A stretch of 37,938 bases of DNA. Origin: Natrinema pallidum DSM 3751 (lineage in GTDB: Archaea; Halobacteriota; Halobacteria; Halobacteriales; Natrialbaceae). This document shows positions 20,177 through 25,239 of this stretch, piece after piece. Each line of letters begins with the position of its first letter. Within the stretch, counting starts at the first letter, position 1. The stretch spans positions 1-37,938 of the forward strand of contig NZ_AOII01000085.1 of assembly GCF_000337615.1 (NCBI RefSeq), given 5' to 3'. A program made the position numbers and the translations under genes. Under the pieces are notes generated by a model. The model searched no databases and was not told the origin of the DNA. It saw only the letters and a program-made list of their open reading frames with translations.

Positions 20177-20905
20177 CTACAGGTGGGTCGCGGCCTCGAG
20201 CGAGAGATCGATCGCGCGGCCGACGTTGTTCTTGGCCTTTTCAGGGAGTTCGTCGTCCTCGGTGGCGGTTCCCTTCTGGGTTCCTTCGACGAGGTTCCCG
20301 TCGACGGTACAGATCGCACCGGCGCGCAGGCCCTTGCGGCGGGCCAGCGAGAAGACGGCGGCGGCCTCCATCTCGACGGCGAGCATGCCGGCGGCCTCCC
20401 AGTCGTCGACGGCCGCGTCGGTCTCGGCGTAGTAGGCGTCGTCGGAGGCGATCGGACCGACGTGGACGTCCTCGTCGTTCGCCTCGGCGGCGTCGGCTAA
20501 CGCCGACAGCACGTCGTAGTCCGGAACCGCGGGGTACTCGGCGGCCTCGTACCGTTTCGACGTGCCCTCGTTTTTCGCTGCGCCCGTCGCGACGATCATG
20601 TCGCCGATCTCGATACCCGACTGGAGCGCGCCGGTCGTGCCGACGCGGATGAACGTCTCGACGCCGACGTTCGCCAGTTCTTCGATGGCGATCGCGGCGG
20701 ACGGGCAGCCGATCCCCGTCGAACAGATCGTCAGCTCTCGGCCCTCGTAGGTTGCGTTGACGACCTTGTACTCGCGGTTCTGTGCGATCGTCTCCGATTC
20801 GTCGCAGTGGTCGGCGATGCGATCGACCCGCCCGGGATCGCCCGGGATGAGCGCGATATCTGTCAGGTCGCCGTCGTCGACCAACAAGTGTGGCTGCGTC
20901 GCCAT
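20177..20905 (-). CDS. udp: Uridine phosphorylase family nucleoside phosphorylase
   Basis: A 242-residue PNP/UDP-family enzyme that cleaves nucleosides with phosphate to base and (deoxy)ribose-1-phosphate. Phosphate-binding GDPGR is at residues 22-26, the second phosphate/ribose motif VGTTGA at 88-93, and the ribose-binding EMEAA at 178-182. ATG 20905 (MATQPHLLV) is preferred over an upstream in-frame start because the TATA-like TTTTTT (20931-20936) is 26-31 bp upstream. Uridine is the most likely substrate by similarity, but guanosine or broader use is possible. It opens a block with a PfkB kinase, R15P isomerase and deoC, which would consume its sugar phosphate products. Confidence 0.92.
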   Translation of the reverse strand: MATQPHLLVDDGDLTDIALIPGDPGRVDRIADHCDESETIAQNREYKVVNATYEGRELTICSTGIGCPSAAIAIEELANVGVETFIRVGTTGALQSGIEIGDMIVATGAAKNEGTSKRYEAAEYPAVPDYDVLSALADAAEANDEDVHVGPIASDDAYYAETDAAVDDWEAAGMLAVEMEAAAVFSLARRKGLRAGAICTVDGNLVEGTQKGTATEDDELPEKAKNNVGRAIDLSLEAATHL

Positions 20906-20930
20906 ACCGTCGGGTTCCGTGGGCGGTGGC

Positions 20931-20936
20931 AAAAAA
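20931..20936 (-). promoter_or_regulatory. TATA-like element of udp
   Basis: A T-hexamer on the minus strand lies 26-31 bp upstream of ATG 20905, fitting a leaderless message and deciding the start. Confidence 0.5.
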
Positions 20937-21027
20937 GGTTCGAGGGAGGGCCACGCAGCGATCGGTGTGACCGGTGCTCATCGATGCCACCCCCGTCCCC
21001 CGCTCGACGGCGGCTCCGCCCGCGATC

Positions 21028-21330
21028 TCACTCGGCCGGACGAACATCGACGCGCTCCGGGCGAATCGTAACGACCGCGTCGTCGATCTCGAACTCGACT
21101 AGCCCCGTCGTCCGGGTATCGCCGCGGTTCGTCTCGGCGAAGAGGCTGTCGAGTGCGTCCGGGTCGATGTACTCGTAGAGCTGCGTACTGGTTCCGGTGG
21201 CGTCGTCACCGTAATACCGGGCCAGTGCCATCGCAGCGGCGATACTCGGCGGTTCGTCCGCTCGTCGCTCGTACCGGACCGGCCGTCTAAAGCCGCATCC
21301 GTTCGAGTCGTTTACCCTTCCTTCCGTCAT
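21028..21330 (-). CDS. HalOD1 output-domain protein
   Basis: A 100-residue stand-alone HalOD1 domain, a haloarchaeal output module thought to work in signalling. The family core is seen in the SIAAAMALARYYGDDA-like N-terminal helix, DPDALDSLFAETNRGDTRTT and the C-terminal beta strands VEFEIDDAVVTIRPERVDV. No sensor domain is attached. Its ATG (21330) is preceded by a perfect 8-bp inverted repeat and a TATA-like element further up, so it may be regulated. It lies between uridine phosphorylase and the PfkB kinase on the same strand. Confidence 0.85.
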   Translation of the reverse strand: MTEGRVNDSNGCGFRRPVRYERRADEPPSIAAAMALARYYGDDATGTSTQLYEYIDPDALDSLFAETNRGDTRTTGLVEFEIDDAVVTIRPERVDVRPAE

Positions 21331-21336
21331 GTCTCT

Positions 21337-21356
21337 CAGTCACGGGATCGTGACTG
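21337..21356. promoter_or_regulatory. 8-bp palindrome in the HalOD1 gene leader
   Basis: CAGTCACG (21337-21344) and CGTGACTG (21349-21356) are perfect inverted arms around GGAT. The TATA-like TTATATG on the minus strand (about 21384-21390) predicts a start of transcription near 21357-21360, so the palindrome covers the first 20 bases of the message. It could be a repressor operator or an RNA hairpin just before the start codon at 21330. Confidence 0.45.
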
Positions 21357-21470
21357 TTCACTCAGGTGGCCAACGTCCCCACGCATATAACTACCGTCAG
21401 ACGACACCCGGTGAGAATCGCGTGACTGCGGTACTGGTCCCAGCTCACACGGCTCATAAGAATCCATCGG

Positions 21471-22355
21471 TTACGACCGCTCCGTGAGAACGTCCTCGAC
21501 GGCCGCGGCCGTCGGCGCGCTCCGCGCGCCGTCGCGACCCGCAGTCAGCGCACCACAGGCGTTCCCGAACGCGAGCGCGCAGTCGATATCCCCTCCCTCG
21601 AGCCACGTCGCGAGAAAGCCGGCGGCGAAGGCGTCGCCCGCTCCGGCGGTATCGACGGGATCGACATCGAATCCCGCGTGAACGACGGTCCGATCCGGGG
21701 TGTACGCTTCGGCCCCGTCGGCTCCGCAGGTGACGACGATGATGCTCCCGTCGGCCGCGTCGGTCCGATCATCCCCGAACAGCACCGTGGCTTCCCGCTC
21801 GGTCACGAAGACGACATCCGCGAGCGCGAGCGCCTCGCCGTACTCCCGGTCCCCGAGCCGGCGACCGGGATCGAAACTGACGGATCGCCCCGCGTCGCTC
21901 GCGAGTCGGGCGATCGCAGCGGCGGTGTCCGGCCGTTGCCCCGTGAGGTGAACGTGATCGGCCGACCGAACGCGCTCCGGGTCGACATCGTCGGGTGCGA
22001 CCGCCTCGTTGACCCCGTCGTTGCCGAGTATCGCGACCTCCCCCGTCTCGTCGACGAGGAGGTACTTGACCGCCGTTTCGGCTCCCTCGACCACGCGAAC
22101 GCCGGACAGCGAGACGCCCGCCGCCTCGAGTTCACGGCGGGCGAGCAGGCCGTGATCGTCGTCGCCGACGCTGCCGATCAGCCCGGTCTCGACATCGAGG
22201 CCGGCGAGTGCGGCGGCGACGTTGGCGGCGCTACCGCCGCCGGACTGGCGTTGCGAGCGGATCGACGCCTCGCCGTCGGGTTCGGGGAACCTGTCGACAC
22301 GGAGGGTCACGTCCCAGTTGACGTGTCCGGCAGCGAGTACCGTAACCGAATCCAT
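21471..22355 (-). CDS. PfkB-family sugar/nucleoside kinase (candidate ribose-1-phosphate kinase)
   Basis: A 294-residue ribokinase-family enzyme. The substrate-binding GGGSAANVAAALAGLD is at 39-54. The anion-hole/catalytic DTAGAGD is at 235-241, with Asp241 the base, followed by AFAAGFLATW. ATG 22355 (MDSVTVLAAGHVNWD) fits the family N-terminus; a T-run at 22387-22391 would give a short leader. Substrate is not readable from the motifs. Halophilic archaea are known to use a PfkB-type ATP-dependent ribose-1-phosphate kinase feeding R15P isomerase. The location between a nucleoside phosphorylase and R15P isomerase makes that role attractive; ribokinase or nucleoside kinase are alternatives. Confidence 0.9.
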   Translation of the reverse strand: MDSVTVLAAGHVNWDVTLRVDRFPEPDGEASIRSQRQSGGGSAANVAAALAGLDVETGLIGSVGDDDHGLLARRELEAAGVSLSGVRVVEGAETAVKYLLVDETGEVAILGNDGVNEAVAPDDVDPERVRSADHVHLTGQRPDTAAAIARLASDAGRSVSFDPGRRLGDREYGEALALADVVFVTEREATVLFGDDRTDAADGSIIVVTCGADGAEAYTPDRTVVHAGFDVDPVDTAGAGDAFAAGFLATWLEGGDIDCALAFGNACGALTAGRDGARSAPTAAAVEDVLTERS

Positions 22356-22434
22356 TCGATGACAGTGGGACGACGACCGCACGCGGCAAAAACCTAGGTG
22401 ACGACGGGCAGCCGGCCGGTAGAATCGACGGCGC

Positions 22435-23256
22435 TCAGCCGACCGCGAACAACAGCGTGTTGTGAACGGCCGGCCCGAGCCCGACCGCGGCGACCAACGC
22501 GAGGACGGTCCGCGCCTGCTGGGGTCGGTCCTCGACGTACTCGCGGAAGAGCCCGAGGATGACCACCGCGAGGACGACCTTGACGAGGACGAACAGCCAC
22601 CCGGCACCGATGTACTGCGCGGTCGGCAGCGCCTTGCCGGCCTCGAGGATCAACAGGGAGAGCGGGACGTCCTCGCCGGCCGTGAGGACGTCGTATCCGA
22701 TCGCGGTCGTGACTCCGTCCAACGCGTGGCCGAAGACGACGAGCACGCCCGTTGCACCCGTGGTCGCCGCGATGTCGGTGACCCAGAGACTCACCACGAG
22801 CCAGACGACCGCGGTGACGATGCCGGCGGCGACGACGCCGATAACCGGCCAAAAGGGCGCGATGGTCCCGGTCTCGAGACTGAGAAGGATCGCGCCGGTC
22901 GCGAAGACGGTGAAAAACGCCGTGCCGGCGATGCCGACGAACCGGGGGATCGTCCGCTGGAGGCCGCCGACGTGGAGGAAGACGGCGACGATCCAGACGG
23001 CCCCCGCGACAGTCGCCGTCACCGCATAGACCATCGGCGCGGTAAACAGCGGCTCGATGCTCGGCGGGAACGCGGCCAGTTTGTAGAGGACGTGGAGCGT
23101 CGCACCGAACATCATCCACGGCGCGAAGGCGATGACCGTCCGGTCGGTCACCGGCGGCTCGAGCGCCCACAGCAGTGCGATGATGCTGCCGAGGATAACG
23201 ATGACCGGTACCAGCAGGTACCACGGCGGGACGACGAACCCCTCGGGTAATACCAT
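22435..23256 (-). CDS. DUF63 family membrane protein
   Basis: A 273-residue protein with about seven to eight transmembrane helices, matching the archaeal DUF63 family. Landmarks are the N-terminal LPEGFVVPPWYLLVPVIVIL, the FAPWMMFGATLHVLYK segment after helix 2, the central FGHALDGVTTAIGYDVL with conserved His/Asp in the membrane, and the C-terminal LGLGPAVHNTLLF-like end. No function is known for the family. Lying 79 bp upstream of the PfkB gene and 117 bp downstream of the R15P isomerase gene, all on one strand, it could belong to nucleoside metabolism, but DUF63 is also found elsewhere, so this is weak inference. Confidence 0.87.
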   Translation of the reverse strand: MVLPEGFVVPPWYLLVPVIVILGSIIALLWALEPPVTDRTVIAFAPWMMFGATLHVLYKLAAFPPSIEPLFTAPMVYAVTATVAGAVWIVAVFLHVGGLQRTIPRFVGIAGTAFFTVFATGAILLSLETGTIAPFWPVIGVVAAGIVTAVVWLVVSLWVTDIAATTGATGVLVVFGHALDGVTTAIGYDVLTAGEDVPLSLLILEAGKALPTAQYIGAGWLFVLVKVVLAVVILGLFREYVEDRPQQARTVLALVAAVGLGPAVHNTLLFAVG

Positions 23257-23373
23257 AGGGCCAATAGCTCACACCAGGAACTAACACTTTCCGATTATCG
23301 AAGATTCAGTCCGGTGAAAAATTCTAGTCCGACCGGTGGCGAATACAGCACAGGTCGTCGAGTTGCGGCCGCT

Positions 23374-24372
23374 TCAGACCGTCCACGGTTCGTCGGTCGT
23401 CTCGCCGAAGAGTTCTCGCATGAGTGTCACAATGCTTTCCGGGGGGAACTGGCCGCGCTCGGTGACGATCGCATCGACGTACCGCGCCGGCGTCACGTCG
23501 AAGGCGGGGTTGTCGACGGTCAGGCCGTCGTCTTCGGCAGCGGATTCGTCCTCGTCCCCTTTGCCGATGATCGTCGCTCGCTCCTCGTCGGAGAGTACCT
23601 CGCGCTCGTCGCGCAGTTCGATCTCGACGGTGTGGCCCGTCATCGTGTCCGGATGGAGTTTGATCGTCTGGGCCGCGACCATGACGGGGACGCCCCGCTC
23701 GCGGGCGTTGACCGCGAGCCCGCTCGTTCCGACCTTGTTGATCACGCTGCCGTCGGCCGCGATGCTGTCGGCCCCGACTAACACGTGGTCCACCCTGTCG
23801 AGGTACCGGCGGGCCGCGTTGTCCACGATCACGGTCACCGGAACGCCCCACTCCCGGAGCTGTCGAGCCGTGATGTGGCCCTGTTTTCGCGGCCTGGTTT
23901 CCTTGACGATCGCTTCGATCGCTTTCCCCGACTCGAGGGCGACGTCGATACAGGCGAGCGCGTCCGTCGAGTGGCAGTGGGTCATCACGACGTCGCCGTC
24001 TCGGAGCCGGTTCGCGCCGATCTCGCCGAGCGTCTCCTGGGCGCGCTCGAGGTCCCGACGGAAGGTCTCGGCGCGGGCGATCGTCGACGCCCGGAGGTCG
24101 GCGACGGTCTCGCCGTCCATCCCGCGGAGCACGTACCGGAGGGCGTTCGGGAGACTGACCGCGGTGGGCCGGGTCTCGTAGAGCGTTCTGGCGGCGGCTC
24201 GCAGGTGGCGTCGGAACGCCGCCGGGCTCTCGGCTCCGGAGCGGTCGGCCTGGGTCGCCAGCGCCGCGGCGGCCGCGTCGGCGATCGTCGCCGCGCCCCG
24301 AATCTCCATGGTGGCGATATCGTCGGCAGTGGCTTCGACGGCCGGGACGACTCCGGGTTCGGCATCGGCCAT
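23374..24372 (-). CDS. Ribose-1,5-bisphosphate isomerase (eIF2B-alpha-like family)
   Basis: A 332-residue enzyme converting ribose-1,5-bisphosphate to ribulose-1,5-bisphosphate. Both residues known as catalytic in the Thermococcus enzyme fall at the same numbers here: Cys133 in [11 protein letters not shown] and Asp202 in [12 protein letters not shown]. The N-terminal [17 protein letters not shown] (22-38) and [10 protein letters not shown] are also typical. An acidic insertion (about 265-285) is a halophile feature. No Rubisco is in the window, consistent with the halophile route that dephosphorylates RuBP instead. The alternative, methylthioribose-1-phosphate isomerase, is less likely given Cys/Asp and context. 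TATA-like CTTTTG (24397-24402) precedes ATG 24372 by 25-30 bp. Confidence 0.92.
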
Positions 24373-24396
24373 GCCGGGGGATTACACGCCGCCGCT

Positions 24397-24402
24397 CAAA
24401 AG
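24397..24402 (-). promoter_or_regulatory. TATA-like element of the R15P isomerase gene
   Basis: The minus strand reads CCTTTTG, 25-30 bp before ATG 24372. The 231-bp region shared with the divergent deoC holds both promoters and no visible gene. Confidence 0.45.
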
Positions 24403-24572
24403 GATACTGTCGGTCGTCCCCGTGTGGACCCGTCAGCGGACGAATCGGCGTCGCTCACGGCACCGGTCGGACGAGGTGTCCCGGTAGGTCCGTTTTTCGG
24501 CGAGGGATACAGCAGCGTCAGGGCGGCTCGAGTGCCGGTCACGAACGGTGCCAGTCGAAGACGATCGGACGG

Positions 24573-24579
24573 CTTTTTG
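24573..24579 (+). promoter_or_regulatory. TATA-like element of deoC
   Basis: CTTTTTG lies 25-31 bp upstream of ATG 24604, supporting that start and a leaderless message. A similar CGTTTTTCGG lies further up at about 24490-24499. Confidence 0.5.
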
Positions 24580-24603
24580 CCCGTCCGGCGAGTCCGCTCG
24601 GGT

Positions 24604-25239
24604 ATGGATCGCAGCGAACTCGCGCCCCTGATCGACCACACCGTCCTCGGCCCCGCGACGACTCCCGCCGACGTCCGGGGCGTCCTGGACGAGGCTACCG
24701 AGTACGGCATGAACGCCTGCATTCCGCCGTACGCGGTCGAACTGGCGGCCGAGTACGCCCCTGACGTAACTCTCGCGACGGTAATCGGATTCCCCCACGG
24801 CCAGCACGCGCCCGCCGCGAAACGGAAGGAGGGAGTCGCCGCCTGGCAGGACGGCGCGGACGAACTCGATGTCGTGCTCAACATTGGTCGGCTGAAAGCC
24901 GGCGAGGACGACGCGGTCAGGGACGAACTCGCAGAATTGGTTGCCGCGGTACCGATTCCGGTCAAGGTGATTATCGAAACCGCGCTCCTGACCGACGTGG
25001 AGAAACGGCGGGCCTGCGAGGCCGCCGCGGCAGCCGACGCCGCGATGGTCAAGACCGCGACCGGGTTCGCGGACGGCGGGGCCACGGTCGACGACGTGGA
25101 CCTCATGAGCGACTTCCTCCCCGTCAAGGCCAGCGGCGGGATCGGCAGCTACGAGGCTGCCGTCGCCATGCTCGAGGCGGGTGCCGAACGGATCGGGGCC
25201 TCGAGCGGAGTCGACATTCTCGAGGGCGCACCGGAGTAG
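24604..25239 (+). CDS. deoC: Deoxyribose-phosphate aldolase
   Basis: A 211-residue class I aldolase splitting 2-deoxyribose-5-phosphate into glyceraldehyde-3-phosphate and acetaldehyde. Substrate-binding IDHT is at 10-13, Asp89 lies in ELDVVLNIG, the Schiff-base Lys150 in MVKTATGF, and the proton-relay Lys175 in VKASGGIG. All catalytic residues are present and the length is right for archaeal DeoC. It is divergent from the R15P isomerase gene and would handle the deoxynucleoside branch of the same block, while the isomerase handles the ribose branch. Confidence 0.95.

What the first reader, a model, noticed from the sequence alone, without database searches (positions are those of the whole stretch)
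20177..25239. Gene block for a Rubisco-free nucleoside/pentose bisphosphate pathway
Uridine phosphorylase, PfkB kinase, R15P isomerase and DeoC lie within 5 kb. A non-carboxylating pentose bisphosphate pathway has been described in halophiles (nucleoside phosphorylase, ATP-dependent R1P kinase, R15P isomerase, RuBP phosphatase, ribulose-1-phosphate aldolase). The window supplies the first three steps plus the deoxyribose branch through DeoC. A uridine-fed entry and the DeoC link would extend the guanosine-based description.
Basis: partly seen in the sequence, partly recalled or inferred. Interest (0 to 1): 0.7.

Follow-up and report, generated by a model that had tools for sequence, protein, structure and literature searches.

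The report
Nucleoside pentose-bisphosphate operon, Rubisco present
This salt-loving archaeon (a Natrinema species) carries the already described gene cluster that turns the ribose of nucleosides into ribulose-1,5-bisphosphate, but its genome has a Rubisco to use that product and lacks the Rubisco-free enzymes, so the finding is a known pathway variant rather than a new one.

Summary
In detail: guanosine/uridine-type phosphorylase, PfkB kinase, R15P isomerase and divergent DeoC lie at 20177-25239 of a Natrinema contig. [quoted passage not shown] Sato et al. 2022 (PMC9700705) described these genes, their operon and the pathway. The headline is wrong: the genome (99% complete) encodes a full-length type III Rubisco on another contig and has no class II (FucA-type) aldolase, no RuBP-phosphatase ortholog and no NMP phosphorylase. 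[quoted passage not shown] The uridine entry is also disfavoured: the phosphorylase misses the uridine-phosphorylase cut-off and lacks the uracil-binding Gln/Arg/Arg triad, while a paralog on contig C31 appears to keep it. The DeoC link is real as synteny (divergent within 1 kb in 46 of 69 haloarchaeal loci), but its metabolic meaning is inferred. Across 101 genomes, R15P isomerase occurs only where Rubisco III or RuBP phosphatase occurs (81/82 versus 0/19). Two combinations go beyond the 2022 paper: both RuBP outlets together (Haloarchaeobius, Halorubellus), and NMP phosphorylase with the Rubisco-free branch. One Natrinema keeps a decayed Rubisco remnant at the original site.

The parts
20177..20905 (-). 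Nucleoside phosphorylase, Urdpase1 type (probable guanosine/purine nucleoside phosphorylase)
   Evidence: PF01048 159 bits; TIGR01718 uridine phosphorylase 218.8 bits, below cut-off 280.3; Urdpase1 position in the operon; no Gln166/Arg168/Arg223 equivalents
21028..21330 (-). HalOD1-domain small protein, function unknown, conserved in the operon
   Evidence: PF18545 61.3 bits; present in 36 of the fetched loci
21471..22355 (-). [quoted passage not shown]
   Evidence: NF053626 462.4 bits, cut-off 330; PF00294
22435..23256 (-). DUF63 multi-helix membrane protein between isomerase and kinase genes
   Evidence: PF01889 57.6 bits, cut-off 25; conserved position; confident helical model, pLDDT 93, no solved relative found
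23374..24372 (-). Ribose-1,5-bisphosphate isomerase
   Evidence: TIGR00511 456 bits, cut-off 314; aligns over its length with solved R15P isomerase 5yfj, E 1.3e-87
24373..24603 (.). Divergent intergenic region (231 bp) between R15P isomerase and DeoC, presumably carrying both promoters
   Evidence: gene coordinates; promoter role inferred
24604..25239 (+). Deoxyribose-phosphate aldolase DeoC
   Evidence: TIGR00126 193.6 bits, cut-off 117.3; aligns with solved DERA 5dbu, E 3.3e-50, vKTaTGF and vKaSGG motifs kept

Best explanation
The block encodes the upper half of the carboxylating pentose bisphosphate pathway in a Natrinema. A purine-type nucleoside phosphorylase releases ribose-1-phosphate, the PfkB-family ATP-dependent kinase makes ribose-1,5-bisphosphate, and R15P isomerase makes ribulose-1,5-bisphosphate. 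RuBP is then consumed by the type III Rubisco encoded elsewhere (contig C91), giving 3-phosphoglycerate. [quoted passage not shown] DeoC, transcribed divergently, probably handles the deoxyribose of deoxynucleosides in parallel (deoxyribose-5-phosphate to glyceraldehyde-3-phosphate and acetaldehyde). Shown here: gene content, curated family membership, absence of the alternative branch, conserved synteny. Inferred: substrates and flux in this organism, co-regulation, DeoC's role.
For: R1P kinase and R15P isomerase exceed curated equivalog cut-offs. Type III Rubisco in the own genome: 614 bits, cut-off 497, full length, with the KPK, KDDEN, HRAMH, SGGLHPG and GGG motifs aligned to solved archaeal Rubiscos. 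No PF00596 aldolase. No RuBP-phosphatase ortholog. Only a 31.6-bit NMP phosphorylase match, on a TrpD-like protein. Operon and variants published. Over 101 genomes R15P isomerase occurs only with Rubisco III or RuBP phosphatase (81/82 versus 0/19).
Against: No activity, transcript or growth data for this organism. Rubisco is unlinked to the operon. The assembly is 115 contigs, so a missing gene cannot be wholly excluded (99% completeness). A non-homologous RuBP phosphatase or aldolase would not be seen.
Confidence: 0.87

Rival explanations
1. [quoted passage not shown]
For: The same upper operon serves the non-carboxylating pathway in other haloarchaea, and two other genomes of the same genus carry the phosphatase and aldolase (G055, G080).
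Against: Own genome has intact Rubisco III, no PF00596 aldolase and no phosphatase ortholog.
Confidence: 0.04
2. The operon phosphorylase is a true uridine phosphorylase, so the pathway is fed mainly by uridine.
For: Best NCBIfam and PDB matches are uridine phosphorylases.
Against: Below the uridine phosphorylase cut-off; no Gln166/Arg168/Arg223 equivalents in 45 Urdpase1 proteins; the triad appears to be kept in the paralog on C31; a Halorubrum Urdpase1 prefers guanosine and then adenosine/inosine.
Confidence: 0.1
3. The product R15P/RuBP serves nucleotide salvage (reverse flow) rather than catabolism, with Rubisco in another role.
For: In Thermococcus, R15P is a node between nucleosides and NMPs.
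Against: NMP phosphorylase is absent here, so R15P cannot be turned into NMP by that enzyme.
Confidence: 0.05

Closest known systems
[quoted passage not shown] 2022, PMC9700705, Fig. 5b)
   Same: Urdpase1, ATP-R1P kinase, R15P isomerase and Rubisco present, NMP phosphorylase absent; gene spacing fits the published Haloterrigena locus tags Htur_0567/0569/0571, with one gene in each gap
   Different: DeoC, DUF63 and HalOD1 neighbours are not discussed in the parts of that paper read here; no biochemistry for this species
Non-carboxylating pentose bisphosphate pathway (same paper, Fig. 1b/5c)
   Same: Identical upper three steps and operon
   Different: RuBP phosphatase and Ru1P aldolase absent, Rubisco present
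Carboxylating pentose bisphosphate pathway of Thermococcus kodakarensis
   Same: R15P isomerase to RuBP to Rubisco III
   Different: ATP- rather than ADP-dependent R1P kinase; no NMP phosphorylase
Bacterial deo gene clusters (own knowledge)
   Same: DeoC close to a nucleoside phosphorylase gene
   Different: Here DeoC is divergent and next to R15P isomerase; no phosphopentomutase gene in the block

Membership tests
Non-carboxylating pentose bisphosphate pathway | Nucleoside phosphorylase, ATP-R1P kinase, R15P isomerase | tested here: met
Non-carboxylating pentose bisphosphate pathway | RuBP phosphatase (HAD) | tested here: not met
   best own-genome match 48.9 bits, partial; orthologs elsewhere 266-505 bits
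Non-carboxylating pentose bisphosphate pathway | Ru1P aldolase (class II, FucA-like) | tested here: not met
   no PF00596 match in own genome; 60 of 101 genomes in the family sample have one
Non-carboxylating pentose bisphosphate pathway | Absence of Rubisco | tested here: not met
   Rubisco III, 614 bits
Carboxylating pentose bisphosphate pathway without NMP phosphorylase (Sato Fig. 5b) | R15P isomerase plus type III Rubisco | tested here: met
Carboxylating pentose bisphosphate pathway without NMP phosphorylase (Sato Fig. 5b) | No NMP phosphorylase | tested here: met
   only 31.6 bits, cut-off 535, on a TrpD-like protein
Carboxylating pentose bisphosphate pathway without NMP phosphorylase (Sato Fig. 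5b) | Enzyme activities R1P to R15P to RuBP to 3-PGA in this organism | not testable with these tools
   needs assays
Uridine phosphorylase (TIGR01718) | Curated cut-off 280.3 bits | tested here: not met
   218.8 bits
Uridine phosphorylase | Uracil-binding Gln166/Arg168/Arg223 | tested here: not met
   role of the triad from PMC5238616
[quoted passage not shown]
   462.4 bits
R15P isomerase (TIGR00511) | Curated cut-off 314.1 bits | tested here: met
   456 bits
Deoxyribose-phosphate aldolase (TIGR00126) | Curated cut-off 117.3 bits and Schiff-base lysine motif | tested here: met
   193.6 bits; alignment with 5dbu

The most novel reading that the evidence does not exclude
The haloarchaeal RuBP node is modular: one conserved upper operon is plugged into Rubisco, into RuBP phosphatase plus Ru1P aldolase, or into both. 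The outlet has been exchanged within single genera: one Natrinema with the phosphatase and aldolase keeps a truncated Rubisco at the ancestral site. Haloarchaeobius and Halorubellus keep both outlets, so RuBP must be partitioned between CO2 fixation and cleavage. Nine genomes feed NMP phosphorylase into the Rubisco-free branch. DeoC and DUF63 would be further members of this nucleoside-catabolism module.
Probability: 0.55. Interest if true: 0.45.

Novelty: already known. Interest (0 to 1): 0.25.

Why it matters
The block is a textbook case of a pathway published in 2022, and the check shows that the upper operon alone does not tell which way RuBP is used: the same operon sits in genomes with Rubisco, without it, and with both outlets. 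Calling a genome 'Rubisco-free' from this operon is therefore unsafe. The exchange of outlets within a genus, and genomes with both, make it testable why an archaeon would keep or lose Rubisco for nucleoside breakdown.

Tried and rejected
Rubisco-free reading: rejected. NMP phosphorylase: the only match is a TrpD-like anthranilate phosphoribosyltransferase. Third PF01048 protein of the genome (C84, L082) resembles a methylthioadenosine/purine nucleoside phosphorylase by its N-terminal motif and is not part of the block. A MAFFT alignment of E. coli UP with the two haloarchaeal paralogs misplaced the GQxR motif of the C31 paralog; the HMMER pairwise alignment was used for that protein instead. 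DUF63 function: profile search found no solved relative, and Foldseek/VIA gave only weak, tied matches (best Z 6.4, E 0.43), so no fold or function is claimed. This pathway in Haloarchaeobius: no paper found in the library. DUF63: the search returned 122 papers, but the ten listed matched longer names (DUF630, DUF632, DUF637 and the like), so nothing useful was found.

Full report
WHAT IS THERE. The window is a whole contig (G000:C85) of a haloarchaeal genome of 3.9 Mb in 115 contigs, 99% complete. Its R15P isomerase is 98% identical to that of Natrinema altunense and 97% to that of N. gari, so the organism is a Natrinema. The block reads, on the minus strand: R15P isomerase (23374-24372), DUF63 membrane protein (22435-23256), PfkB kinase (21471-22355), HalOD1 protein (21028-21330), nucleoside phosphorylase (20177-20905). 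DeoC (24604-25239) is divergent, 231 bp from the isomerase start. Curated models confirm R1P kinase (462 bits, cut-off 330), R15P isomerase (456, cut-off 314) and DeoC (194, cut-off 117). The phosphorylase is a PNP/UDP-family member that misses the uridine phosphorylase cut-off (219, cut-off 280).

WHAT IS ALREADY KNOWN. Sato et al. 2022 (PMC9700705) found these genes in operons in halophilic archaea. They showed R15P isomerase activity (Htur_0571), ATP-dependent R1P kinase activity (Halxa_1682) and guanosine phosphorylase activity of a so-called uridine phosphorylase (Hlac_2318). They described three outlets for RuBP: (i) Rubisco with NMP phosphorylase, (ii) Rubisco without NMP phosphorylase, (iii) RuBP phosphatase plus Ru1P aldolase. 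The locus-tag spacing in Haloterrigena turkmenica (0567 phosphorylase, 0569 kinase, 0571 isomerase) fits the gene order seen here. I infer that 0568 and 0570 are the HalOD1 and DUF63 genes; I did not read that locus.

WHICH VARIANT IS THIS. The genome carries a full-length type III Rubisco on contig C91 (614 bits, cut-off 497). Its alignment with solved archaeal Rubiscos keeps the lysine, acidic, histidine and phosphate-binding motifs (reading of motifs from own knowledge). No class II aldolase was found (the same model rings in 60 of 101 genomes of the family sample). No RuBP-phosphatase ortholog was found: the best own-genome match to the HAD protein beside the aldolase in G022 (L094) is 48.9 bits over a part, whereas 55 genomes score 266-505 bits. 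That this HAD protein is Sato's RuBP phosphatase is inferred from its position beside the aldolase gene, as in their Fig. 3, not from a direct sequence comparison. NMP phosphorylase is absent: the 31.6-bit match is on a TrpD-like protein. This is variant (ii).

THE ENTRY SUBSTRATE. In E. coli uridine phosphorylase Gln166, Arg168 and Arg223 recognise uracil (PMC5238616). The window protein, aligned with that enzyme, has a deletion and other residues at this place, and so do all 45 operon-type proteins compared. A second family member on contig C31 (L083) aligns with the same enzyme with DSFYAGQGR against DTFYPGQER and a downstream NR, so it is the better candidate for a uridine phosphorylase. 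Together with the published guanosine preference of Urdpase1, uridine feeding through the window enzyme is unlikely, though not excluded without an assay.

DEOC. Of 79 fetched loci, 69 are haloarchaeal by their record titles. DeoC lies in 51 of them, divergent and within 1 kb of R15P isomerase in 46; several loci are cut by contig ends, and the sample is weighted to relatives of the query. The linkage spans Natrialbaceae, Haloarchaeobius, Haladaptatus and Natronomonas. The main text of Sato et al. does not mention DeoC or deoxyribose. A parallel deoxyribose branch is the natural reading, but it rests on family function alone.

CO-OCCURRENCE ACROSS THE FAMILY. In 101 genomes (table) R15P isomerase above cut-off is found in 82; 81 of these have Rubisco III or RuBP phosphatase, and the exception is a 66% complete genome. 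None of the 19 without it has either. Rubisco III and RuBP phosphatase tend to exclude each other (26 and 48 genomes alone, 7 with both). The Fisher values ignore shared ancestry and should not be read literally. The seven with both are six genomes of one genus and G006. Identical DNA names three of them: Haloarchaeobius iranensis, Haloarchaeobius sp. FL176 and Halorubellus salinus. Nine genomes have NMP phosphorylase and the phosphatase/aldolase branch but no Rubisco. Sato et al. found neither combination among their 63 species by their text. Named examples of the second are Natrialba swarupiae, Natronolimnohabitans innermongolicus, Natronococcus pandeyae, Natrarchaeobius chitinivorans AArcht4T and Natronosalvus hydrolyticus. 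A 2025 paper already reports that two Natrarchaeobius strains differ in the outlet (PMC12343721).

EXCHANGE WITHIN NATRINEMA. In the window's genus, G000, G008, G068 and G089 have Rubisco alone, and G096 has Rubisco and NMP phosphorylase. G055 and G080 have phosphatase and aldolase. G036 has neither and has lost R15P isomerase from inside the otherwise conserved operon. G055 retains only the last 116 residues of Rubisco (90% identical) between the same flanking sequences as in the window's genome, so Rubisco was lost there in place. Whether the loss came before or after the other branch was gained is not known.

OPEN POINTS. Absence calls rest on a draft genome. DUF63 sits between the isomerase and kinase genes in most loci. 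It has invariant acidic and basic residues and a confident helical model, but no recognisable solved relative. Its role is unknown; a transport or membrane role in nucleoside use is a guess.

Noticed in passing
L121 4762-5106 (G055:C59): Decayed Rubisco: only the C-terminal 116 residues remain, between the same flanks as the intact gene of the window's genome, in a Natrinema that has RuBP phosphatase and Ru1P aldolase.
   Followed up: yes
L105-L111 (Haloarchaeobius, Halorubellus): Seven genomes carry Rubisco III, NMP phosphorylase, RuBP phosphatase and a class II aldolase together, a combination absent from the 2022 survey by its text.
   Followed up: partly
L112-L120: Nine genomes have NMP phosphorylase with the RuBP phosphatase/aldolase branch and no Rubisco, against the 2022 statement that NMP phosphorylase occurs only with Rubisco.
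   Followed up: partly
window 22435-23256: DUF63 membrane protein conserved between R15P isomerase and R1P kinase genes; model pLDDT 93, no solved relative found; a second DUF63 protein lies on C92 of the genome.
   Followed up: partly
L124 (G036): Natrinema-genus operon from which only the R15P isomerase gene is missing; this genome also lacks Rubisco and RuBP phosphatase.
   Followed up: partly
G025, G049, G062, G064, G088: Rubisco-like proteins of about 250-283 bits, well below the type III cut-off, in haloarchaeal genomes; possibly another Rubisco form or a Rubisco-like protein.
   Followed up: no
window 21028-21330: HalOD1 protein in the operon has a weak match (44.6 bits, cut-off 70) to the DdfA disk-determining factor family.
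   Followed up: no
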